A DNA stretch of 64,000 bases, from contig JAPFFF010000038.1 in assembly GCA_039105265.1 (NCBI GenBank), forward strand, positions 1,116,001 to 1,180,000, given 5' to 3'. Position numbers and translations under genes: made by a program. Positions 7,840 to 59,153 of this stretch are shown here, piece by piece. The notes beneath the pieces were generated by a model that was not told the origin of the DNA, ran no database searches, and saw nothing but the letters and a program-made list of their open reading frames with translations. This DNA is from Tritrichomonas musculus. Its lineage: Eukaryota > Parabasalia > Tritrichomonadida > Tritrichomonadidae. Every line of letters starts with the position of its first letter. The stretch's first letter is position 1.

Positions 7840-8316
7840 TCATTCTATTAAGCATTTTTTAGATTTTTTAGATTTTGATTTGCTCTTTAAAGAGACGCGA
7901 TGCATAAAGTTGAAAATTGCTCTTTTAATATCTGGACGGTTTAAAATGATTTCTACCATATTAAATTCACAATTTTTCACAATAATATGAAGTTCTCCAT
8001 TTTCAAAATAGAAATGATCAGATGAGATCAATTTATCATAATAAATTGTATAAATTAAAATATATTTAGCATTGATTTTTAAATCTGGCCTCGCTAATAA
8101 AAGAAGAATGATTTCGGGATTACAATTTTCAATTGCAATGAATAATGGCATAGAATTAAATAAAAGTATCAAATTATCTTGTCAGGTATTATTTTATAAA
8201 TAAATATTGATTTGAAATTAATAGTGAATTGACGTCTGTTTCTTTTTTGGATAGTAAAAGTTTTACAACTTCAGGATTTCTTTTCTTAATTGCAATGATT
8301 AAAGGTGTTTGATAAA
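7840..8316 (-). CDS. Distal ankyrin islands and basic C-terminus of the split ankyrin gene at 8599-10026
   Basis: Reading down the minus strand, 8316-8225 encodes one ankyrin repeat (TPLIIAIKKRNPEVVKLLL, ending ETDVN). After about 65 bp with stops, 8160-7840 encodes another (MPLFIAIENCNPEIILLLL, ending DLKIN), an in-frame stretch about 15 residues longer than normal, a further repeat (NGELHIIVKNCEFNMVEIIL) and a Lys/Ser-rich end (KSKSKSKKSKKCLIE). The islands contain no internal stops and continue the repeat phase of the ORF upstream, so I read them as the distal part of the same gene. How they would be joined is unclear: no trichomonad intron motif is visible. Confidence 0.55.
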
Positions 8317-8598
8317 ATCACAAAATTGAATTTGATATTTGTTAAAAAAAAATAAAAATAAACATTATAAGATAAAAATCAAGTATGAAATGCTATTAAA
8401 AAAAGATAAATTTTCAAATATCTAGATAAAAAAATAAATTTGAAACACTGTTAAATAAATGCATTTAAAATCACATACAAATCATTTATTTTCAATTTGA
8501 TAAAAAACACGTATTTTTGATATGTTATAAGTAAAAAATGATATAAAACCTTTATCCAATTAAAATAATTCATTTTTAAATGTCATTAAAAATATTGA
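8317..8598 (-). other. Stop-filled AT-rich spacer inside the split ankyrin gene
   Basis: The spacer separates the first ORF from the next ankyrin island. In the sense direction it starts beyond DLN and ends just before TPL. It has no ACTAACACACAG-type trichomonad 3' intron motif. It contains TTTTTAATGACATTT, a motif shared with spacers of the ankyrin gene at 52543-55755. Confidence 0.5.
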
Positions 8599-10026
8599 TC
8601 AAATTGGATTTACAATTAAAGATGAAACTATTCTTTGAATATTTAAATCAATGTCTTGTTTTGATATTAACATTTTCACTATTTCAACATTTCCTTTTTC
8701 AACAGCTAAATGTATTGGTGCAATATAAATTTTAAATGAAAATCCAATAAAAGTTGAAACTAAAATTTCTGATTCATCAAAATAGTATAAAGTATGTTCA
8801 TTGAAGGAATATGCATAAAAATATATTTTAAATTTGATTAAAAAAAAACAAATTTTTGTAATTATGACTGTATTTATATTGTAATATGTATTTTCTAAAA
8901 TATAATAAACTATGTAAATATAATCATATTTGCAGCTATTAAAGAAAATATTATCAATTTGGCCATTGAATTTTTCAATTGTATTAAATTCATATTGAAG
9001 TTCTTCATGTAAATTAATAAAATTATAATATGCAAAACCATCAATATTTGAATAAAAATTTGTCCAATAATGAAGGTCTTTATTAACATCAAAATTGTCT
9101 TTGATGTAATTGGCAATATCATTATGATGACATTTAATTGATTCTTTATAACATTGATTGCGTTCATTATAAATTGGCTGCTTTACATGATTTTCTTCAA
9201 GAAAGTGTATCAATTCTGGATTTTTGCTATGAATTGAATATAACCATAATGTGGATTTCAATTCTATTTGATTCATAAACAAATATTTTATGATTTGCAT
9301 AGATCCATAAAACGATGCATATTCAATTAATGATGATTCTCTTTTTAATAAAAATAAATTTGTTTCAAAAATCGATGGCTTTATTATTGATGAAATATTC
9401 ACATTGTTTTTATTAACATAAACAATGAATTCTTCAATTGAATCATTTTGTATTAATTGACAGATATAGTTATCATTTTGACCATTTATTCTTTTAGATT
9501 CGAAAGTGTCATTTTCATTTTTATCAAATAAATGTGTGTCAATTGAAATGATTTCTTTTTTTAACTGTTCATAATAAAATGATTTGAATTCAGGAAAAAA
9601 ATAATGTGGATAATAATATTTTTCTTTGTATTTACCATTTATGATAATATAAAATATTGTTTCATCGGGAATAAGAATTTTTTCTTTAAACAGAAAAAGA
9701 AGAATTTTTTTGTTACTCTTGAAAATGCTAAAAATAGACAAATTTGATAATTTCCCTTTGATTTCGTTTGCATATGTTTTGATTATAATAAAGATTTTTG
9801 GATAAAAATCACGATTTTGGTGATGATTATTCGATATTTTTGAAATTAAATGTAGTAATGCGTTTAGATCAAATTTTTGTTCAACTATTTTTTTATCATT
9901 TATATATTGAACAATTTCATCAAAATAATCTTCTTCTTCAGAATTATCTTCAACATATTTAAGAATTTTTTCATTAATTGGTTTCATTATCTCGATATAT
10001 TCTTTGGTAAAAGTTCTTAAATTCAT
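8599..10026 (-). CDS. DUF3447/ankyrin protein, first segment
   Basis: ATG at 10026; 475 residues. The N-terminal half is a conserved trichomonad module also seen in three other genes here (start MN-x-x-x-x-x-EY, then LLHLISKISNNHHQN and the IFKSNKKILLFLFKEKI segment). The middle is a DUF3447-like ankyrin region: NDNYICQLIQNDSIEEFIVY, SLIEYASFYGSMQIIKYLF, IHSKNPELIHFLEENHV, and the family motif KCHHNDI. The ORF ends with one repeat, HLAVEKGNVEIVKMLI, then DIDLN and 14 non-family residues before the stop. The abrupt end at D-x-N and the islands downstream suggest that this is only the first part of a longer protein. Ankyrin proteins are binding scaffolds; the partner is unknown. Confidence 0.8.
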   Translation of the reverse strand: MNLRTFTKEYIEIMKPINEKILKYVEDNSEEEDYFDEIVQYINDKKIVEQKFDLNALLHLISKISNNHHQNRDFYPKIFIIIKTYANEIKGKLSNLSIFSIFKSNKKILLFLFKEKILIPDETIFYIIINGKYKEKYYYPHYFFPEFKSFYYEQLKKEIISIDTHLFDKNENDTFESKRINGQNDNYICQLIQNDSIEEFIVYVNKNNVNISSIIKPSIFETNLFLLKRESSLIEYASFYGSMQIIKYLFMNQIELKSTLWLYSIHSKNPELIHFLEENHVKQPIYNERNQCYKESIKCHHNDIANYIKDNFDVNKDLHYWTNFYSNIDGFAYYNFINLHEELQYEFNTIEKFNGQIDNIFFNSCKYDYIYIVYYILENTYYNINTVIITKICFFLIKFKIYFYAYSFNEHTLYYFDESEILVSTFIGFSFKIYIAPIHLAVEKGNVEIVKMLISKQDIDLNIQRIVSSLIVNPI

Positions 10027-21669: not shown

Positions 21670-22935
21670 ATGGACTTTCAAAAGAACTTGGAGATAAAAA
21701 AGAACATTCAAAACGCACTCATAGAGTATGTTGATGAAGGAAATGAAGATAGCTATGATCAATTGATTAAATTAATATCTGAATTAAAAATTGAAGAAAA
21801 TCCCAATGAGTTAAAAGATATTATACGTCTAATAAATACTTTTTACAATAACCACCATCACACACGAGATTTTTTCAGCAGGATAGATAAACTCGTCTTA
21901 AATTATATATCCAATATTCAACAACTTTTATCGAACAAAGAAAATTTCTACATATGCAAATTCAATTTTCGATTTTTATTACTATTATATCAAGAAAAAA
22001 TCATCTCAATTGAAGATTATCCAAAAAAATCAGGTTTATTCCGCACATTTTTCTATGAAAAATTTCATCCAGATTTTTCAAAAGTTTACGAAATTACAGG
22101 TGAAAATTATGACCTTGAAAAATATGAGGAAACTCGAAAAATTGGGGAAAATCATTTATATATTTGTTCATTAATTAGAAATGATTCTATCAAAGAATTC
22201 ATTTCATATGTAAACAAGTCAAATTATCCACTTTCGAGTAGAATTAAACGATCACCTTTTGAGACGAATGAATTATTACAAGGACGAGGTGAAGTCACGC
22301 TAATTCAATATGCAGCCTTTTTTGGATCAATTCAAGTATTCCAATATTTGAAAATGAATGAAGTTGAATTGACGCCTTCTTTGTGGCTTTATGCGATTCA
22401 TTCAAACAGTCCCGAAATGATCCATATTCTCGAAGAAAACAACGTTCCAATAACCGAATTGTTTGAATACGTATCGCATCCTATATTTGCAAGAGTGGAT
22501 AAAAAAAATGCTTCTAAAGGAAAAATTTTGAATGCTTTGAAAGAATTGATGAATGAAGCCATAAAATGTCATCACAATGATATTTTCAATTATTTACAAA
22601 ATAATTTCGATCTCGAAAAAAACACAAAAGAACCAAAAGATGACGATGAAAAGGAAGGAAAATCTTTCTGGAATAAAATGGCTGGTTTGTTTAGAAAAGA
22701 TGACAACAAACAAAAGAATAATAGCAGCGATAATAATATGGTTAATTTGTCTGATGAACAGTTATTGTATCCTTCTATTTTTGGAAGTTATAATTATTCT
22801 TGTTTTCCTGAAAAAATTGAAGATAATTTGTTGTTTTATTATTTGGTCACATATGGTTATACATCACTTGTTGAATACTTCTTGAAAGAAAAGGATATTA
22901 ATATCAATGCATTAATAATTTTCACAAATTTTTAA
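21670..22935 (+). CDS. DUF3447/ankyrin protein, first segment (continues to BspA repeats)
   Basis: ATG at 21670; 421 residues in this frame. It has the same N-terminal module as its paralogs (MDFQKNLEIKKNIQNALIEY, NELKDIIRLINTFYNNHHHT), then the DUF3447-like part: NHLYICSLIRNDSIKEFISY, TLIQYAAFFGSIQVFQYL, IHSNSPEMIHILEENNV, KCHHNDI. A charged insert of about 50 residues (EGKSFWNKMAGLFRKDD) is particular to this copy. The frame ends TSLVEYFLKEKDININ plus eight residues and a stop. The next ankyrin repeat lies about 170 bp downstream as an isolated island. Confidence 0.8.
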   Translation: MDFQKNLEIKKNIQNALIEYVDEGNEDSYDQLIKLISELKIEENPNELKDIIRLINTFYNNHHHTRDFFSRIDKLVLNYISNIQQLLSNKENFYICKFNFRFLLLLYQEKIISIEDYPKKSGLFRTFFYEKFHPDFSKVYEITGENYDLEKYEETRKIGENHLYICSLIRNDSIKEFISYVNKSNYPLSSRIKRSPFETNELLQGRGEVTLIQYAAFFGSIQVFQYLKMNEVELTPSLWLYAIHSNSPEMIHILEENNVPITELFEYVSHPIFARVDKKNASKGKILNALKELMNEAIKCHHNDIFNYLQNNFDLEKNTKEPKDDDEKEGKSFWNKMAGLFRKDDNKQKNNSSDNNMVNLSDEQLLYPSIFGSYNYSCFPEKIEDNLLFYYLVTYGYTSLVEYFLKEKDININALIIFTNF

Positions 22936-23102
22936 ATTTAGTTTTTTATTATTTTTATTTTATGTCGTTTTTATATTTAAATATGTTTGAATGAAGTTCT
23001 GAATTAATGAATTAAATAGCATTTTATATCATTTTTTTTTTCAAATAACATTTCAGAAAATTTGTTTTTTTTAAAATAATGTTTCAATCAAATATATTTT
23101 AC

Positions 23103-23200
23103 GTATCTTATTTGTATCAGGCAATTATTAATTCTCATATTGATATAGTTAAAATATTATTAGCAATTCCGAAAGTCGATGTTAATCTTAAATCAATTTA
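23103..23200 (+). CDS. Isolated ankyrin-repeat island
   Basis: One repeat, SYLYQAIINSHIDIVKILL to PKVDVN, is followed by four codons and a stop. It has no start codon and stops in all frames on both sides. Spacers of about 170-200 bp separate it from the frames at 21670-22935 and 23347-24714. It continues the repeat phase of both neighbours. Confidence 0.55.
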
Positions 23201-23346
23201 AAAGCATTTTATTTTTGAATGAAATTTCTTCATCTTTTTGTTATCATTTTTATGTAATTCCAAATCATTTTTTTTTAATCTCACTGTTACTTATATATTC
23301 TATTATTTTATAAAATTTCTTTTCTTTTTTGAATAAGGATATTTTT

Positions 23347-24714
23347 TTTTTTTCCCAAGAATCTCCGTTGTACGCTGCATATAATAAAAACAACAATGAC
23401 ATAGTCCAACTTTTATTAGATCACAAAGGAATTGAATTTGGAAATAATGTACTATTAAAGAGCACAAAACTAACAGAAATAATCATACCATCAAAAATAA
23501 CAGTGATTGGCAAAAGTGCATTTCAAGAGTCATTTTTGCAAAAGATTACACTTCCAGAATCAGTGACAACAATTGAACCCAATGCATTTAAAGAAACAAA
23601 ACTGGAAGAAATAGAAATTCCTGACTCAGTTACATTAATAGGTGCCGGTGCGTTTCAAAAGTGCAAGTTATTAAAGAAAGTTATTCTATCTAAGTCAATC
23701 ACTGTAATTGAAGAGTCTTTATTTAATGGTTGTGAATCACTTGAAGAAATAACGATGCCACCTTCAATTACCCAAATAAACAAAAATGCTTTTAATGGTT
23801 GCAAGAAACTAATATATATTGACATACCACTATCATTGACATCAATTGGTGAATCTGCATTTAAAGATTGTCAATCAATGGAGATAATTTTGATTTCTTC
23901 TTCAGTTTCAACAATTGGAAAAGAATGTTTTTGTAACTGCCAAAAATTGAAAGAAGTTTCTTTGCCTTCTTCTTTAACAGAAATATCCGATGCTTTGTTT
24001 AGACGATGCACATCATTAGTAAGCATCATTCTTCCTTCATCACTGACCAAAATTGGAGGGGAATCGTTCAGTGAAACTGGATTGGTTGAAGTATCAATTC
24101 CTTCTTCAGTTGTGCTTATCGATTCATGTGCATTTTCAAAATGCAGCTCTTTAGTTAGTGTGAACATTCCAGACTCTGTTGCTACTATTGATGGCTCAGC
24201 TTTCTCAAAATGCACTTCACTCAAAAGCATTATTCTTCCTCCATTGATAAATGTTATTAGATACAATTTATTCAATGGCTGTTCGGCTCTTGAAAAAGTT
24301 CAAATTCCATCAACTGTGAATGCTTTTGAAGATTCTTGCTTCGAAGGATGCTCTCTTCTCAGTGATGTAGCAATTCCTCCTTCATTGACAAAAATTGGAA
24401 ATGCTTCCTTCAAAGATTGCAAATCATTAAAAGAGTTGAAGCTTCCAGACTCATTGGAGTCAATTGGATCAAACGCTTTCTGTGATTGTTCTTCATTGAA
24501 TCAAATTTCAATTCCATCCTCAATAACATCGATTCCAATTGGCTCTTTTCGTCGATGCAAGTCATTGTCTGCGGCCGAAATACCTTCTTCAATTACTTCG
24601 ATCAGTGATTATGCTTTTGATGGTTGCTCCTCGCTTGTTGAAGTCTCAATTCCTGAATCAACTGAGATTAAAAATACATCTTTTCCTCCAGAAACAATAG
24701 TTACGAAATATTAA
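23347..24714 (+). CDS. Ankyrin repeat followed by BspA-like leucine-rich repeats
   Basis: The open frame has no ATG at its 5' end, only a TTG. Its first recognisable residues, ESPLYAAYNKNNNDIVQLLL, form an ankyrin repeat in the same phase as the island upstream. After IEFGNNV the sequence passes directly into about 17 TpLRR/BspA repeats of about 23 residues (consensus xxIPSSVTSIGxxAFxxCxSL), ending FPPETIVTKY. BspA-like proteins in trichomonads are mostly surface or secreted and are linked to host and bacterial contact, but this one has no signal peptide or C-terminal membrane segment in the visible sequence. I read 21670-24714 as one gene in three visible pieces. Confidence 0.75.
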   Translation, partial: FFSQESPLYAAYNKNNNDIVQLLLDHKGIEFGNNVLLKSTKLTEIIIPSKITVIGKSAFQESFLQKITLPESVTTIEPNAFKETKLEEIEIPDSVTLIGAGAFQKCKLLKKVILSKSITVIEESLFNGCESLEEITMPPSITQINKNAFNGCKKLIYIDIPLSLTSIGESAFKDCQSMEIILISSSVSTIGKECFCNCQKLKEVSLPSSLTEISDALFRRCTSLVSIILPSSLTKIGGESFSETGLVEVSIPSSVVLIDSCAFSKCSSLVSVNIPDSVATIDGSAFSKCTSLKSIILPPLINVIRYNLFNGCSALEKVQIPSTVNAFEDSCFEGCSLLSDVAIPPSLTKIGNASFKDCKSLKELKLPDSLESIGSNAFCDCSSLNQISIPSSITSIPIGSFRRCKSLSAAEIPSSITSISDYAFDGCSSLVEVSIPESTEIKNTSFPPETIVTKY

Positions 24715-27927: not shown

Positions 27928-29067
27928 ATGAGTTCTCTTCCAATCATTGATTCTTTGAACAAATTTGGCATTGAGCTATTGCAAAAAATCAACCAAAATA
28001 AAAATCAAAACGTAGTTTTTTCACCATATTCTGCTTTTGCATGTTTGTCAATGCTTCCATCATTGTTCACAAATCAAACAAGGAATGAAATCCTTAAATC
28101 CCTACAGATTCCAAATGAGTCAAAGGTTCAAATTGATTCTTTTTTGAAGCAAGTCCGAGAATTATATGATAAAGAAAAGACAGAATTTGTTTCAAGTTCG
28201 AATCGAGTTTGGGCGAATGGAAAACTGAATTTCAGTCCAGAAACATTTGCACCAAATTCAAAGATCCTTGGTGTTCCTATTGAAAAAGTTATCTTTCCAC
28301 AGCCAGGCTGTGACAAGATCAATGAAGATATTAACAAGACAACACAAGGAATGATACCAAAGATCATTGAGCCTTCTGACATTCCCGTAAATTGTGCCAT
28401 TGTACTTACAAATGCAATATTTTTCAAGAGCAGGTGGGATGAAATATTTGTGGAAGATCCCAGTTCAAAAAACGCAAGCACAAAGAATTTCATTTTATCA
28501 GATGGAAAACAAATCCATGCTCATATGATGGAATCAACTGAAAGACAATTACTTTATTATGAAAACAAAATGTTTCAACTTGTTTGCATTCCTTATTTAC
28601 ATCATAAATACGATTTCGTTGTCATCCTTCCAAAAGACAAGTCAAACAATGGATACCAAAATTTGACAAAACTTAATTATGACCAAATTAACAACGAAAT
28701 GTTGAAGAATGCAAAAATTAAAGTTGTTAACTTGAAATTGCCAAAATTCGAAATTGAATCACAAATGAATTTGAATGACATTTTGATGTCTCTCGGAATG
28801 AAAAAAGTTTTCTCGCCTGATGCTGATTGTTCTGATCCTAAAGTCAAATATTTCGTCAGTTTGGTTTTGCAAAGAGCAAAAATCAGCGTCGATGAGAATG
28901 GAACTGTCGCTTCTGCTGCAACAATGGCAATGATGGAAGAAGGAGCATGCGAAATAGGAGGTGAACCAGTTGACTTTTTCGCTGATCATCCATTTGCTTA
29001 CATATTAAGAAACAAAAGAAGCAAATCCTTCATTTTTGAAGGAATCGTTAAAAATCCTTCTGAATAA
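27928..29067 (+). CDS. Serpin
   Basis: The frame can be read back to a TTG at 27895, but the first ATG is 27928, giving 379 residues (MSSLPIIDSLNKFGIELLQK) with no signal peptide; this suits an intracellular serpin. Family blocks are in order: NVVFSPYSAFACLSMLPSLF, SSNRVWANG, INKTTQGMIPKII, LTNAIFFKSRWDEIF, LPKFEIES and a final DHPFAYILRNKRSKSFIFEG. The hinge VDENGTVASAATMAMM is inhibitory-type (small residues at P12-P9). By spacing, the scissile region falls near MEEGACE, so P1 is uncertain (Glu or Gly). Serpins trap serine or cysteine proteases; the target here is unknown. Length and frame are normal. Confidence 0.93.
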   Translation: MSSLPIIDSLNKFGIELLQKINQNKNQNVVFSPYSAFACLSMLPSLFTNQTRNEILKSLQIPNESKVQIDSFLKQVRELYDKEKTEFVSSSNRVWANGKLNFSPETFAPNSKILGVPIEKVIFPQPGCDKINEDINKTTQGMIPKIIEPSDIPVNCAIVLTNAIFFKSRWDEIFVEDPSSKNASTKNFILSDGKQIHAHMMESTERQLLYYENKMFQLVCIPYLHHKYDFVVILPKDKSNNGYQNLTKLNYDQINNEMLKNAKIKVVNLKLPKFEIESQMNLNDILMSLGMKKVFSPDADCSDPKVKYFVSLVLQRAKISVDENGTVASAATMAMMEEGACEIGGEPVDFFADHPFAYILRNKRSKSFIFEGIVKNPSE

Positions 29068-52542: not shown

Positions 52543-54655
52543 TTATTTTTTGGCTTTTGGCTTTTTGCTTTTTTTCTCCAATAAAAGTTCAATTATTTGG
52601 TCATCATTAATTTCATATGCAAGCTGTAAAACAGTTTTTTTATTAATAATAATTGATTTTGAATTTCATTAAATTGACCAATGCAATTTTATACAAATAT
52701 TTTATATAATTTTATTAAAATATTCGATATTAAATTGTATTATAAAAATAAATATTGAATTTCATAAAAAAAATTATAATATGAAAATATTGACAATATT
52801 AAGATTAATTGTAGGACTTGTTAACAATAGCTTAACAATTTCTATATTTCTTTTCTCCACTGCAAGAAATAATGCAGTTTTATCAATTTATGTCATAATT
52901 TCATTCAATTATTTCATATATAATTTCATTGAAATTATTTATACTTAATGCTATTGAAATAGTTAGATATGAATTGTATTTCAATAGCTAAATTCGAATT
53001 ATATTGAATTATTTTAATCATAATTGGATTTAATATAGATTTTGTAATTCCAAAAGAATTTTGGATATAAAACATCATTAAATCTTTAAATTCCAAATCA
53101 TATGAAAATTTGGTGTATGAAATTTCATTGAAAAACTTAATTAAGAATATCATTGAAATTATTTTGATCAGAATGTTATTAAAATATCTAATTAAAAATA
53201 TCATTAAAATATTTCTTTTTTAATATTATAAAGAAATTTTGACTTTGAACTGTATTATAATTATTTAATATAATTTTATTGGGATATTTATTTGATGAAT
53301 ACAATTAAATATGATAAAGATGAATTATGTTTACAAAATTCAGATCTATGTCATTCCTTGTCAATAAAAGTTTGATGATTTCAACATATCCTTTCTCAAC
53401 TGCAACAAAAAGTGGTGTTTTATATAATTATGTAGAAATTTTATTTAAATATTATTTTTTTGTGAATGACATAAAATAACATATTGCAAATGTCATTAAA
53501 ATGAATTGGTATTAATTCTATTTAAAAAATTCATATTGAATGTAATTAAAGCAATCAATAATAAACGAAATTGAAATAATTAAAGTTAAATTCGATTGAA
53601 ACATTTATTTAATAAATATAATTCATATATCAAATTTAAAATGTCAAAAAAATAAAATGATTTTTGAATGCCATTTGAAAATTCAACTCAAAATTCTATT
53701 GAAATGTTAGTAATAAATTCCATTAATTTATAACAAATGTCATTTGAAATATATCAATAAATGTCATTTGAAATGCTTAAAAAAATATCATCAAAATTTT
53801 GTAGCAAATATAACAAAAGTAAAATTAAAATCTTATTTAAATACTGTTAAAATGAAATGAAAATGTTTGAAATAATAAAATTTAAATATTAAATATTAAA
53901 TGTCATTAAAAATTAGCATTCAAATTGCATCAAAACTTGATTTATTGAATATAATAAAAAAATGAATAATAAATTTGATTTGAAAATTAAAAAAAGAAAT
54001 GGTATAAAATGCATTATATTGAAATTAAAGGTATATTAATATTAACTTTATTATTTGATAATAAAAGTTTCACAATTTCAATATTTCCTTTTTCCACTGC
54101 TCTATAAAACACTGTTTCCTCATTGCAACTATATATTGATTCATAAAATATTGAAAATTGAATGATATCAAAATATTTGATGAGACAGCATTATATTATG
54201 ATGCAAAATGTCATTAAAATGATATAAAAAAGAATTTTAAAAAAAAACAAATTTAATTAAAATTCTTAATATATTAATATCAATTCTTTTATGACTTAAA
54301 ATAAGTTTGACAATATCAATATGTCCATTTGAAACTGCATAATAAAGAGCAGTATAAACCAATGTTATTGAATGCATTGATAAAAAAAAATGATGTTTAA
54401 ATTAGATTTTCATAAATATTAATATAAAAACGCTTAGTATATTTACATCAAGCTTTGGATTTGCTAATAAAAGTTTAACAATTTCAATATTTCCATTTAG
54501 AGCAGCAATATGAAATGCTGTATTAAATTATTGTATATTTAATTAGACCGGAAGAAGTATTTTTCGCATTGATATTGAGTTTTTTATTCGCCAGTAAAAG
54601 TTTAATTATGTCAAATCTCTCATTTTTAACTGCAGCGTAAAATGGGGATATATCA
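52543..54655 (-). CDS. Seven ankyrin islands with basic tail, distal part of the gene at 54658-55755
   Basis: Reading down the minus strand there are single-repeat islands at about 54652-54569 (SPFYAAVKNERFDIIKLLL), 54522-54441 (TAFHIAALNGNIEIVKLLL), 54352-54273 (TALYYAVSNGHIDIVKLIL), 54118-54036 (TVFYRAVEKGNIEIVKLLL), 53421-53338 (TPLFVAVEKGYVEIIKLLL), 52884-52801 (TALFLAVEKRNIEIVKLLL) and 52641-52543 (TVLQLAYEINDDQIIELLLE), the last ending EKKSKKPKAKK-stop. Each opens at the T-x-L of a repeat and closes just after its D/N-x-N. Spacers of about 40, 46, 88, 154, 614, 453 and 159 bp lie between them and contain stops. No GT-AG or ACTAACACACAG pattern is consistent across them. I read these as parts of one gene, joined by an unknown mechanism or decaying together. 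Confidence 0.6.
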
Positions 54656-54657
54656 AA

Positions 54658-55755
54658 TTATAGTATTTGAATTTTGTTTTTCATTAAATTGACATTTACA
54701 TTGGGTAATCTAACTATTTTTTCGGCAAATAATATATAATCAAAATCAATTAAATCATTCAAAACTTTTTCATTAATTTGATCAGGTTTAATAAACTCCA
54801 GATTGTAATATTTCAAATACAATGGCAAAAAATCATATTGATTTTCGTTTTGCATATAATTATTTAGAATGTATTTAGCTATATCATTATGATGGCATTT
54901 AATTGCTTCTTCATAGCATTCATTATAGGAATAATATGGTAAAACTTTATTTTCTTCAAGTAGATGAATTAACTCGGCATTTTTCCCATGAATTGCATCA
55001 ATCCACAATGATTGAGTTAATGCAACACCATTTTGCATTAAATATCGAAAAATTTGAATTGATCCAAAGAATGCTGCATATCCTATTAATGATTTACATT
55101 CATTAAAATTAAAATTAACTTCAAATATGGATGAATATATTTGCATCGATAAATTAATGATATTTTTGTTAACATAAATAATAAATTCTTCAACTGAATC
55201 ATTACGTATAAGTTGACACAAATAAGACTCATTTTCTGCAATTAAACGATTTTTGTAAAAATTTTCATCTTCGTTGCTTGAATTTGGATTGAGTTCAGGT
55301 GAAAAGTATTTATCAAAATTCTCTGCTTGATTTCGTCTTGAGTACAGGTGAAAAGTTCTATTCAAATTTTTTGATTTTTGTTTCAATTTAGTTGAAACGT
55401 ATTCATCAACAACTAATATCTTTGAGTTGATAAGAAATATAAGTATTCGTCTATTATCTTCAAAAATTCTAAATATTTCTGAATTTGAAAAATATTTACT
55501 AATATCATCTTTGAAAAAGGTTATTATTTTGTCAAAATTCTCAAAAAAATTGGGTTTTCGGTGATGGTTTAGTGATATTTTTGAGGATAAATGAAGAACT
55601 AGTCTAAGTTCGTTGGGATTTTCTTTGATTTTTAATTTATCTAATAATTCAAAAAAATGGAGAGATAGTATCTCTTCGTTGGATTCGGCTTCAATCCATG
55701 CTAAAAGAGCATTTTGAATATCAACCATTTTATTAAGGTACTCTTCAATATTCAT
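54658..55755 (-). CDS. DUF3447/ankyrin protein, first segment
   Basis: The frame extends to an ATG at 55830, but alignment with its paralogs favours 55755 (MNIEEYLNKMVDIQNALLAW), giving 365 residues. The N-terminal module includes NELRLVLHLSSKISLNHHRK and SNSEIFRIFEDNRRILIFLI. The DUF3447-like part has ESYLCQLIRNDSVEEFIIYV, SLIGYAAFFGSIQIFRYLMQ, IHGKNAELIHLLEENKV and KCHHNDI. It ends LPNVNVN plus nine residues and a stop at 54658, immediately before the first ankyrin island. Head-to-head with the gene at 56981, 1.2 kb away. Confidence 0.8.
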   Translation of the reverse strand: MNIEEYLNKMVDIQNALLAWIEAESNEEILSLHFFELLDKLKIKENPNELRLVLHLSSKISLNHHRKPNFFENFDKIITFFKDDISKYFSNSEIFRIFEDNRRILIFLINSKILVVDEYVSTKLKQKSKNLNRTFHLYSRRNQAENFDKYFSPELNPNSSNEDENFYKNRLIAENESYLCQLIRNDSVEEFIIYVNKNIINLSMQIYSSIFEVNFNFNECKSLIGYAAFFGSIQIFRYLMQNGVALTQSLWIDAIHGKNAELIHLLEENKVLPYYSYNECYEEAIKCHHNDIAKYILNNYMQNENQYDFLPLYLKYYNLEFIKPDQINEKVLNDLIDFDYILFAEKIVRLPNVNVNLMKNKIQIL

Positions 55756-56980: not shown

Positions 56981-58210
56981 ATGGAAATCCAAGAATATGT
57001 TTCGACGAAAAAGAAAATTTATGAATCCTTAATAGAGATCATTGAAAGCGAAGAGGAAAATGATTATCTAGATGAATTTCAATTTTTTTATGACCAATTT
57101 GATGATTTACAAATTCAAAGTAATCATGATGAAATGAAAGAATTATTGGAATTAATTTCTATTATTTCACTCAATCATCACCGTAATAACCGCTTTATTA
57201 GCAAAATTACCAAAATTATTTCTCATTATTCAGATCAAATCAATCAAAACTTTTCAAATATCGAAATTTTCAATTATTTTAAAAAAGACAAATTACTTCT
57301 TCTAACATTATTTGAGCTTAAAATCATCAACATCGATAAAGACTTATACCATTTAATGATTGGAAAAAGTGACACAATAGAATCTGAAAAGGAAAAAGAA
57401 GCCAGGCTTCGTCTTCGTTATGATTTGTATTTTTATCCAGAATTCAGGGCTTTTATGAACATAAAAGAGAAGACGGCATATAATAAACAAATAAATAATG
57501 AAGGAATGACTTTAAAAGAATTCAGAGAAAAACGTAAAACAGGTGAAAATGACGGTTATTTATGTGAAATTATCCGAAATGATTCAGTTGAATCATTTAT
57601 TACATATATTAATCAAAAAAACTATTCTTTGGAAAGCAAAATCACATCATCGATTTTTGAAACAAATTTTTTTCTCATTGAAAATGAAACAAATTTAATT
57701 GAATATGCTGCGTTTTTTGGATCATTTCAAATTTTTCAATATTTATTAATGAACAATGTTGAACTTAGACCATCAATTTGGTTTTATGTAATTCGTGGTA
57801 AAAATGCAGATTTAATTCATCTTCTTGAAGAACATGCAGTGAAAATGCCAAATGAATCATACTCAATAGTTCTCAAAGAAAGTATGAAATGCCATCACAA
57901 TGATATTTCAAACTATTTTAAAAACAACTTTTTCAATGAAGATGACCAAATATATAATGCTAATGATAACATCAAAGAAAATATTTTATCTTATTCATTC
58001 CATTATCATAATTATAGTTTCATCTCTGATTTGTTGGATTTAAAATATGCATTTTGTTACATGTGCAAATATAATTATATCAAACTTGTAGAACTTTTCC
58101 TGAAATATAAAAAGAAAGATATCAATAATCAAATAATTCATAATCAAATATTTTTTAATCAAATTTATATATATATGAATTTAATGACGTTTTTAAATTT
58201 TTATTTATAG
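56981..58210 (+). CDS. DUF3447/ankyrin protein, first segment (continues to BspA repeats)
   Basis: ATG at 56981 (MEIQEYVSTKKKIYESLIEI); 409 residues in this frame. The family module is complete: EMKELLELISIISLNHHRNN, FNYFKKDKLLLLTLFELKII, DGYLCEIIRNDSVESFITYI, NLIEYAAFFGSFQIFQYLLM, IRGKNADLIHLLEEH and KCHHNDI. The last repeat, YIKLVELFLKYKKKDIN, ends at 58126, after which 28 low-complexity Asn/Ile/Tyr residues run to the stop. The next repeat begins at 58262. Confidence 0.8.
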   Translation: MEIQEYVSTKKKIYESLIEIIESEEENDYLDEFQFFYDQFDDLQIQSNHDEMKELLELISIISLNHHRNNRFISKITKIISHYSDQINQNFSNIEIFNYFKKDKLLLLTLFELKIINIDKDLYHLMIGKSDTIESEKEKEARLRLRYDLYFYPEFRAFMNIKEKTAYNKQINNEGMTLKEFREKRKTGENDGYLCEIIRNDSVESFITYINQKNYSLESKITSSIFETNFFLIENETNLIEYAAFFGSFQIFQYLLMNNVELRPSIWFYVIRGKNADLIHLLEEHAVKMPNESYSIVLKESMKCHHNDISNYFKNNFFNEDDQIYNANDNIKENILSYSFHYHNYSFISDLLDLKYAFCYMCKYNYIKLVELFLKYKKKDINNQIIHNQIFFNQIYIYMNLMTFLNFYL

Positions 58211-58261
58211 TGTTTCAATAAAAGTTTAAGTTGAATAAAATTCAAATGAATTTTTAAACAT

Positions 58262-59153
58262 CACTCCATTAAATTCTGCAGCAACTAAAAATAGGCAAGA
58301 AATTATTCAAATGTTACTTTCTGATAAAGAAATTGAAACAGGAAGATTTTATTTTTCTAATTGTTCATTATTGACACGAATTGAAATTCCATCTTCAGTG
58401 ACTTCACTTGAAAGCAAAGCATTTTATGAATGTTCATTATTAGAAAACGTCCAAATTCCATCTTCTGTAACATCAATTGGAAATTATGCTTTTTATGGAT
58501 GTGTATCAATCACACAAATCACAATTCCTGCTTCTGTAACAGAAATTGGAGATCATGTTTTCTGTGGATGCACAAAACTGGCAAAAGTTTCAATTCTTTC
58601 ATCAATTACATCAATTAAAAATGGTTCATTTTTTGGTTGTTATTCATTGACCAATTTTACAATTCCACCATCTGTAACTTCAATTGGTGAAAATGCATTT
58701 TTTGGATGCACCTCACTTACAGAAATTTCAATTCCTCCATCAGTGACATCAATTGGTAAATCTGCATTTCACGGATGTTCGGATTTGAAAGAAATTTCAA
58801 TTCCACCACTAATAGACTCAATTAATAAATACACATTTCATAATTGCACTAGATTGCAAAAAATCCAAATTCCTTCGTCTGTTAAATATATTGGAGAAAG
58901 AGCTTTCTCTTGCTGTTCATCTTTAAAGATTGTAACAATACCTGAATCTGTAACACGCATTTGTGATTATGCTTTTTATGAATGCGATAACTTGAGAAGA
59001 ATCACAATTCCTTCATCTGTAAAATCTATTGGTGAGTGTGCTTTCTCAAAATGTTCAAGAATGGCTCAGGCAAAACTCGAATCATCTTCCACTGTGATTG
59101 GAAAAAAAGCTTTTCCAAATGGCCTTAGCATTTTGAAAGGAGATCCAGAATGA
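58262..59153 (+). CDS. Ankyrin repeat followed by BspA-like leucine-rich repeats
   Basis: Before the first ATG (58311) the frame already encodes an ankyrin repeat, TPLNSAATKNRQEIIQMLL, so that ATG is internal. It passes at EIETGRFYFSNCSLLTRIEI into about 11 TpLRR/BspA repeats (IPSSVTSIGNYAFYGC and variants), ending LSILKGDPE. Architecture matches the plus-strand gene at 21670-24714: DUF3447 module, split ankyrin repeat, BspA repeats. No signal peptide or membrane anchor is visible. Confidence 0.75.

What the first reader, a model, noticed from the sequence alone, without database searches (positions are those of the whole stretch)
52543..55755. Ankyrin gene laid out as one-repeat islands separated by stop-filled spacers
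Seen: after a 365-codon first ORF, seven single ankyrin repeats follow in the same orientation. Each is open from its T-x-L to its D/N-x-N and is separated from the next by about 40 to 614 bp of AT-rich DNA with stops. The break always falls in the loop between repeats. Random decay would put stops and gaps inside repeats too. Known trichomonad introns are rare and carry a GTATGT start and an ACTAACACACAG end; neither is present, and most junctions lack GT or AG. Inference: a non-canonical intron class, or another way of joining modular exons, with concerted decay as the alternative.
Basis: partly seen in the sequence, partly recalled or inferred. Interest (0 to 1): 0.85.

Follow-up and report, generated by a model that had tools for sequence, protein, structure and literature searches.

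The report
Genes split codon by codon
In a mouse gut protist, the 'stop-filled spacers' between single ankyrin repeats turn out to be rows of about 22-letter inserts with one codon between each, so a gene that looks dead seems to be cut into single-codon pieces that must be joined to make protein.

Summary
The window is Tritrichomonas musculus. The window's gene and the 29 best-matching loci (L002/L003 are copies) all carry such repeats, 88 in total. They are under purifying selection (dN/dS 0.305; wrong frames 0.73 and 1.39). The spacers are neither decay nor single introns: their 25-bp period is a ~22-nt AT-rich insert (RTT...TTNAAT/TTNAT) plus one free codon. A stop-blind parse of 82 spacers gives 1142 inserts and 1078 internal codons with 0 stops; about 91 would be expected with independent codon columns; shuffled spacers give 7.8-9.7% stops. 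Genome-wide, the triplet between exact units is TAR 0 times, TGA 2, TAY 197, TG[CGT] 73, of 5386. The joined loops resemble those of uninterrupted paralogues and end E-K in 44 of 82; in two caps the single codon is the residue that an insert-free relative has. Best reading: tandem ~22-nt introns with single-codon exons, removed from RNA, multiplying as a minisatellite. Removal is not shown: no RNA was available, no joined protein was found, and the ends break GT-AG.

The parts
54673..55755 (-). Exon 1: N-terminal DUF3447-like part, up to ...NVNLMKNK
   Evidence: ORF of 365 codons; 118 matches in the same genome, whose open frames exceed 483 aa in only 4 (558, 679, 706, 1077)
54652..54672 (-). 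Predicted single insert of 21 nt (ATTCAAATACTATAATTTGAT) containing the stop of the first ORF
   Evidence: score 4.3; 0 of 60 shuffles reach it
54568..54648 (-). Ankyrin repeat island 1 (SPFYAAV..LNIN)
54522..54543 (-). Possible single insert of 22 nt (ATTAAATATACAATAATTTAAT) after loop AKNTSSGL. This is my reading; the parser made it 19 nt and its score (-11.4) is no better than shuffles (29 of 60 reach it)
54441..54521 (-). Ankyrin repeat island 2 (TAFHIAA..LDVN)
54354..54440 (-). Spacer 3, weakly parsed (3 inserts, score -9.8; 3 of 60 shuffles reach it)
54273..54353 (-). Ankyrin repeat island 3
54116..54272 (-). Spacer 4, moderately parsed (5 inserts, score -1.7; 0 of 60 shuffles reach it, best -16.7)
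54035..54115 (-). Ankyrin repeat island 4
53419..54034 (-). Array of 25 inserts and single codons: IPL.T.Q.Y.A.D.F.F.K.Y.D.D.D.G.R.G.D.Y.R.F.Y.R.D.V.K.K
   Evidence: score 74.9, no stop; shuffles at best -86; found by a model trained without this gene
53338..53418 (-). Ankyrin repeat island 5
52879..53337 (-). Array of 18 inserts and single codons: FVNI.C.K.T.N.D.N.D.E.M.D.G.P.I.T.S.E.E.K
   Evidence: score 77.2, no stop; shuffles at best -56;
52798..52878 (-). Ankyrin repeat island 6
52636..52797 (-). Array of 6 inserts: IVN.E.T.K.K.E.KK
   Evidence: score 15.8; shuffles at best -15.1
52543..52635 (-). C-terminal half ankyrin repeat (TVLQLAYEINDDQIIELLLEKKSKKPKAKK, stop)
   Evidence: judged by eye the counterpart of the C-terminal cap of paralogues
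58127..58262 (+). Second clear example (gene D): NQI.Q.D.S.K.I with 5 inserts (58136-58259) between an upstream exon (from 56981) and an exon with one ankyrin repeat and LRR_5
   Evidence: score 12.3, 0 of 200 shuffles reach it, best -8.8; local scan score 10.9, below the best of two shuffled windows, 11.8
8312..8628 (-). Gene B array, 12 inserts predicted (score 1.9), after the ORF 8602-10026; a second gap (8155-8218) scores -6.3

Best explanation
These are live genes in which the loop between ankyrin repeats is coded one codon at a time. After each repeat come usually three codons, then a series of inserts of about 22 nt (5' R-T-T-Y, 3' T-T-N-A-A-T or T-T-N-A-T) with one codon between neighbouring inserts; the last two codons are often E and K, then the next repeat starts at T-x-L. 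The inserts are removed, most likely from RNA as ultra-short introns, leaving the codons joined into a hydrophilic loop of about 4-37 residues. Insert plus codon is a 25-bp unit that duplicates in tandem, so each duplication adds one residue and one insert. Shown by sequence evidence: the islands are coding; the single triplets behave as translated codons; the outer boundaries are fixed to the base in most junctions and nearly absent from uninterrupted paralogues. Inferred: removal at the RNA level. Unknown: the machinery, because the ends are mostly AT...AT (minority GT...AT) with almost no AG.
For: Islands: dN/dS 0.305 over 77 nearest-neighbour pairs (wrong frames 0.73, 1.39), flat divergence outside. 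Boundaries: RTTT at 10-13 nt after D-x-N in 70 of 83 spacer junctions, YTNAT at 8-4 nt before T-x-L in 78 of 111; in 32 uninterrupted junctions of the same family 2 and 0. Codons: in 82 spacers of 29 genes, 1142 inserts (724 of 22 nt), 1078 internal codons, 0 stops with a stop-blind model; 90.8 stops expected for the 1051 single ones if the three columns were independent, although TAY occurs 105 times. Shuffled spacers: 167 stops in 1716, or 115 in 1472 after retraining. Trained on 37 spacers, tested on the other 45: 1 stop in 569; the reverse, 0 in 536. 26 exon-1 spacers not used in training: 1 stop in 275. A model trained without the window's gene finds it at score 127.6 with no stop; top score in two block-shuffled windows 11.8. 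Genome: 5386 unit pairs, triplet TAR 0, TGA 2, TAY 197, TG[CGT] 73. Loops: composition correlates 0.79 with uninterrupted loops (random spacer triplets 0.41), lengths 4-37 versus 6-41, last two residues EK in 44 of 82. Homologous residues: in three C-terminal caps the micro-exon is Q, Q and E; an insert-free relative has EVDNQGFNFNLWKKP, and the third fits the ankyrin AxDxxG spacing. A partly interrupted gene, L046, carries insert-free loops of the same kind. A similar C-terminal cap closes several of the genes.
Against: No RNA or peptide was seen. A search of 5.8 billion proteins (lengths 254-808 aa) with a repeat of this type found no joined product: 7 candidates, 1 hit, the query itself. 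The authors' annotation, which used RNA-seq, ends three of these genes at the first stop (M9Y10_035821, M9Y10_027191, M9Y10_036083). The ends are not GT-AG; no exact T. vaginalis 3' motif lies in 43 loci or, with up to 2 mismatches, in the window. That every spacer parses means nothing by itself: shuffled spacers parse too, 82 of 82. The model's starting weights (start [AG]T, end AT, 22 nt, one codon) were set by hand after looking at the spacers, so the inner ends and lengths are partly imposed. Reverse-complemented spacers reach a similar score after retraining (22.0 versus 23.7 per 100 nt), with 33 stops in 1091. The model trained on homogeneous genes fits divergent ones badly (-2.5 per 100 nt). 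4 of 82 spacers score below zero, three of them in this window's gene. The 46 inserts include three false ones drawn through island 5. Tandem duplicates are not independent, so counts overstate the number of events. U1 was not found; U12/U6atac searches were silent in the controls too.
Confidence: 0.8

Rival explanations
1. Translational bypassing: the inserts stay in the mRNA and the ribosome hops over each ~22-nt insert.
For: Single-codon spacing of translated triplets would look the same; known for short inserts in yeast mitochondria (byps; recalled, no call). The non-GT-AG ends argue against ordinary splicing.
Against: No terminal complementarity beyond chance (4.35 versus 4.36 +/- 0.04 in divergent genes, 4.83 versus 4.84 +/- 0.06 in homogeneous ones) and no stable fold (mean MFE -0.30 and -0.22 for 150 inserts of each class). 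Up to 34 hops in a row would be needed.
Confidence: 0.07
2. Removal at the DNA level, like ciliate internal eliminated sequences.
For: Short AT-rich inserts with defined ends.
Against: The assembly from whole parasites contains the inserts, and trichomonads have one kind of nucleus (established knowledge). I did not look for rearranged copies of the same locus.
Confidence: 0.04
3. One long non-canonical intron per spacer.
For: Sharp boundaries at both ends of most spacers.
Against: Zero stops in 1078 internal triplets and 2 in 5386 genome-wide; the joined loop would have about 4 residues, shorter than the 6-41 of uninterrupted paralogues; cap residues Q, Q, E would be lost.
Confidence: 0.05
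4. Silent cassettes: islands are a store of repeats moved by recombination into expressed genes.
For: Near-identical islands in many genes, flanked by similar repeats.
Against: Terminal caps and LRR exons are single-use and in order; the single triplets between inserts avoid stops.
Confidence: 0.02
5. Decaying pseudogenes homogenised by tandem duplication.
For: Stops, shifting frames and minisatellites.
Against: dN/dS 0.305 in islands and near-total absence of stops in the codon register.
Confidence: 0.02

Closest known systems
Type B introns of Trichomonas vaginalis and T. stableri (PMC12316389, passages read)
   Same: Uniformly short (23-25 and 23-28 nt); the 5' motif GTWYWD resembles RTTY; T-rich; branch site fused to the 3' end
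   Different: GT-AG ends (...AACAG), one intron per gene (two in three T. stableri genes); here mostly AT...AT, almost no AG, up to 34 in one loop and about 59 predicted in one gene
Ultra-short introns of ciliates, about 25 bp (PMC5014332, start of abstract in a search listing only)
   Same: Similar length
   Different: Tandem arrays with single-codon exons are not mentioned in the part seen; ciliate introns end in AG (recalled)
Non-canonical introns of diplonemids (PMC12621601, search listing only)
   Same: A lineage with introns that break GT-AG
   Different: Not known to me to form 25-bp arrays with one-codon exons
Byps of Magnusiomyces mitochondria (recalled)
   Same: Short inserts inside coding sequence, several per gene
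   Different: Mitochondrial, not one per codon, bypassed in translation; no fold found here
Uninterrupted or nearly uninterrupted ankyrin genes of the same genome (L031, L033, L034, L046)
   Same: Similar N-terminal part, repeats, hydrophilic loops and C-terminal cap
   Different: Loops coded without inserts, or with few

Membership tests
Spliceosomal introns (GT-AG, U2 type) | GT at the 5' end and AG at the 3' end | tested here: not met
   AT..AT 430 of 561 and 212 of 251 distinct inserts, GT..AT 78 and 13, ending AG 2 and 4. The model favoured AT at both ends; the outer ends, read without the model, show the same motifs
Spliceosomal introns (GT-AG, U2 type) | Absent from the mature RNA | not testable with these tools
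   No RNA reads available
Spliceosomal introns (GT-AG, U2 type) | Host has a spliceosome | tested here: met
   Six U2 snRNA matches over the cut-off, the one I read contains GTAGTA; U6 just below its cut-off, 42.5 versus 44 bits; U1 not found
T. vaginalis-type introns | 5' GYAYGY or GTWYWD and 3' RCTAACACAYAG or TCTAAC..AACAG | tested here: not met
   ACTAACACACAG: none in 43 loci, 0 in the window with up to 2 mismatches; insert ends as. The genome-wide search for canonical introns did not complete (14 tries)
U12-type AT-AC introns | AT-AC ends and U12/U6atac snRNAs | tested here: inconclusive
   AT..AC in 15 of 561 and 6 of 251; U12 and U6atac not found, but the control genomes were silent too
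Translational bypass elements | Retained in mRNA; folding of the insert | tested here: inconclusive
   No terminal pairing or stable fold; retention in mRNA not testable
Ankyrin repeat / DUF3447 proteins | Ankyrin repeats after a DUF3447-like N-terminal part | tested here: met
   DUF3447 E 1.2e-4 but 22.3 bits, below the family cut-off of 26.9; repeats; homologues named DUF3447 domain-containing

The most novel reading that the evidence does not exclude
A nuclear genome in which many genes, perhaps hundreds, are interrupted by thousands of tandem ~22-nt AT-AT introns with exons of a single codon, removed by a spliceosome (or another machine) that needs no AG, and in which 25-bp minisatellite growth lengthens a protein loop one residue at a time.
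Probability: 0.6. Interest if true: 0.98.

Novelty: categorically new. Interest (0 to 1): 0.95.

Why it matters
If true, exons can be a single codon long, dozens in a row, with introns that break the GT-AG rule in a lineage thought to be intron-poor. Thousands of codons in this genome would be unannotated and many genes annotated as truncated. It gives an extreme natural test of how short exons and introns can be, a concrete route of intron gain (minisatellite duplication that carries one codon per unit), and a direct question about the splicing machinery of parabasalids. It also warns that 'stop-filled' repeats called pseudogenes may be coding.

Tried and rejected
Single intron per spacer with RTTT...YTNAT ends: my own working model until; replaced when the 25-bp unit split into 22 conserved plus 3 free bases. 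Canonical trichomonad introns: no motif in window or loci; the genome-wide question stayed unanswered. U12-type introns: ends do not fit, snRNA search inconclusive. Hairpin or terminal inverted repeats: seen by eye in two inserts of this gene, not above chance over 812 distinct inserts. Joined proteins in databases: the P0056 search found only itself; the P0121 search found 633 proteins, 120 listed, 13 read, none of them checked against the genome; of the 523 hits of the first search 120 were listed and 12 read. Retro-processed copies: L046 has insert-free loops, but a purine repeat (RGRG) could also have expanded by slippage, so it is not claimed as proof. Literature: ten searches showed no report of single-codon exon arrays or of introns of this kind in Tritrichomonas among the titles and abstracts listed; passages of five papers were read. 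The library lacks most subscription papers, including a 2025 paper on T. vaginalis intron plasticity seen only as a reference.
Full report
What the window is. The window lies in contig C38 of a 193.4 Mb assembly. Its closest named proteins are from Tritrichomonas musculus, and the published genome of that mouse gut commensal is 193.49 Mb with 5.66% of genes annotated with introns (PMC11978803, passages).

The observation. On the minus strand a 365-codon ORF (from 55755) is followed by six full ankyrin repeats and a C-terminal half repeat with gaps of 39 to 616 bp. The first ORF has 118 matches in the same genome; the open frame around a match exceeds 483 aa in only 4 of them. I read the window's gene and the 29 best matches after it (L002-L030; L002 and L003 are copies): all 30 contain such repeats, 88 in total. 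In L028 the repeat lies within the open frame of exon 1, because its spacer happens to contain no stop.

Not decay. Between nearest-neighbour islands (77 pairs from 93 islands) dN/dS is 0.305; the wrong frames give 0.73 and 1.39; outside the island divergence is high and similar in all three phases. Of 66 stop-containing gaps (lengths 46 to 857 plus one of 3271), lengths keep no reading frame (mod 3: 16, 27, 23), so simple stop read-through cannot join the repeats, but 39 of 66 lie at 5-9 modulo 25. Tandem Repeats Finder shows a 25-bp unit in the locus L036; in the window's gene it is fainter.

Fixed boundaries. RTTT begins ten bases after the D-x-N end of the repeat in 70 of 83 junctions, and YTNAT occupies positions -8 to -4 before T-x-L in 78 of 111. 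In 32 uninterrupted junctions of the same family in the same genome (L031, L033, L034, L037) the counts are 2 and 0. By my count in the table, exon 1 ends at the same offset with RTTT in 18 of 29 loci and RTT in 25 of 29; for L008, L017 and the window's gene I set the anchor by hand.

Single codons. In the common 25-bp unit ATTCAAAATCATATCTTTCAAT-NNN, 22 bases are conserved and three are free. I wrote a parser that reads a spacer as codons, inserts, codons, without any knowledge of stops; its starting weights (start [AG]T, end AT, about 22 nt, one codon) were set by hand after looking at the spacers. A strict first version resolved 26 of 82 spacers. The trained semi-Markov version gave, for 82 spacers of 29 genes, 1142 inserts (724 of 22 nt; 17-30) and 1078 internal codons, 1051 of them alone, with no stop. 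That all 82 parse is not evidence: shuffled spacers parse as well. The stops are: if the three codon columns were independent 90.8 would be expected among the 1051; TAY occurs 105 times, TGC, TGT and TGG 26 times. Training on the homogeneous genes and testing on the divergent ones gave 1 stop in 569 (with a poor fit, -2.5 per 100 nt), the reverse 0 in 536; reverse complements gave 48 in 1122 (33 in 1091 after retraining), dinucleotide shuffles 167 in 1716 (115 in 1472 after retraining). The reverse complement reaches a similar score after retraining (22.0 versus 23.7 per 100 nt) because the arrays are periodic, so the score alone does not show the direction. Some neighbouring registers are also stop-free, but those are set by the conserved bases around the codon. 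On 26 exon-1 spacers not used for training there was 1 stop in 275 codons. A model trained without the window's gene finds 52903-54025 with score 127.6 and no stop; it counts 46 inserts, three of them false ones drawn through island 5; the best of two shuffled windows is 11.8.

Genome-wide check. Exact unit pairs with any triplet between them occur 5386 times (2755 plus 2631; reversed-pattern control 0). TAR: 0. TAY: 197. TGA: 2, both on C20. TG[CGT]: 73. In an AT-rich genome, translation of that triplet is the explanation I find for this.

What the codons make. The joined loops are rich in E, K, Y, T and R, have 4-37 residues and end EK in 44 of 82; uninterrupted loops have 6-41 residues and a similar composition (correlation 0.79; random spacer triplets 0.41; 31 of 32 loops used). 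In three genes inserts lie inside the C-terminal cap: EVLDN.Q.(D)FKINFWKKP, NAQNK.Q.DIYIHSWKTP and DATDD.E.GLYRNFWRNP. An insert-free relative (G034) reads EVDNQGFNFNLWKKP, so the single-codon Q falls on Q, and E restores the ankyrin spacing AxDxxG. For the first, the parser put the end of the second insert three bases later than I do. These three short caps have scores of -8.2, -9.8 and -6.7, so the argument there is homology, not score. Gene L046 carries both forms: uninterrupted loops (RKETWGRWWKGEK and others) and an array of 4 inserts (my reading) after a loop that begins uninterrupted. Caps of the type IEDSxGKKPIDYSENxEIKQLLSK close several genes.

The window's own genes. The gene of the finding has about 59 predicted inserts: 1, 1, 3, 5, 25, 18 and 6 per gap. 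Against 60 shuffles each, five gaps are beyond all shuffles (39, 157, 616, 459 and 162 bp); the 46-bp gap is no better than shuffles (29 of 60 reach it) and the 87-bp gap is doubtful (3 of 60). Gene D (56981-59150, plus) has one array, NQI.Q.D.S.K.I, score 12.3 with none of 200 shuffles reaching it, although its local scan score (10.9) is below the best shuffled window (11.8). It lies between an upstream exon (weak ankyrin matches) and an exon with one ankyrin repeat and LRR_5 (E 2e-104) whose first ATG (58311) is inside that repeat. Gene B (7843-10026, minus) has 12 and 2 predicted inserts with weak scores (1.9 and -6.3). Gene C (21670-24711, plus) scores -2.6 and -8.7 with one stop in its parse; its LRR_5 exon (E 4e-157) has its first listed ATG (23755) more than 400 bases into the open stretch.

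How it probably works. The inserts must be absent from what is translated. RNA splicing is the simplest route in a cell with U2 and probably U6 snRNAs, and the 22-nt length and RTTY start recall the type B introns of T. vaginalis (23-25 nt, GTWYWD; PMC12316389, passages). The 3' end TTNAAT looks like a branch site without a following AG; that is an inference. But among distinct inserts the ends are AT..AT in 430 of 561 (divergent genes) and 212 of 251 (homogeneous genes), and AG in 2 and 4, so the defining GT-AG feature is not met and I do not file them as ordinary spliceosomal introns. Insert plus codon is the duplicating unit, so the loop grows one residue per duplication.

What speaks against it. 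No RNA was seen. No joined protein was found in the protein collection, among proteins of 254-808 aa. The authors' annotation, made with RNA-seq, ends three of these genes at the first stop (M9Y10_035821, M9Y10_027191, M9Y10_036083). Tandem duplicates inflate all counts, and the loci examined are the best matches to one N-terminal part, not a random sample. Searches for U1 and for U12/U6atac gave nothing, the latter without a working control. The question of canonical introns in this genome did not complete (14 tries).

Noticed in passing
G000 C36:856764-876755 (minus): 36 of the TAY unit pairs listed lie in this 20-kb stretch, several with a spacing near 989 bp: perhaps a very long array gene or a tandem cluster.
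   Followed up: no
G000 C20:1056687 and C20:2300259: The only two exact unit pairs with a TGA triplet in the genome are both on contig C20; possible pseudogenes.
   Followed up: no
G000 C1:4071802-4079766: Exact unit pairs run on for about 8 kb from the gene of L018.
   Followed up: no
L034 (reverse complement) 1640-1730: A frame change between two uninterrupted ankyrin parts without a clear insert; may be an assembly indel.
   Followed up: partly
window 23314-24711 and 58239-59150: LRR_5 (BspA-like) exons behind exons of the same N-terminal family; annotation from the first ATG would lose their beginning.
   Followed up: partly
G000, six places: Six U2 snRNA matches with similar scores; hits in prokaryotic control genomes for U1 and U2 at E up to 1 show that weak matches are unreliable.
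   Followed up: no
window 27928-29067: Serpin gene matching nearly the whole family profile (E 1e-73).
   Followed up: no
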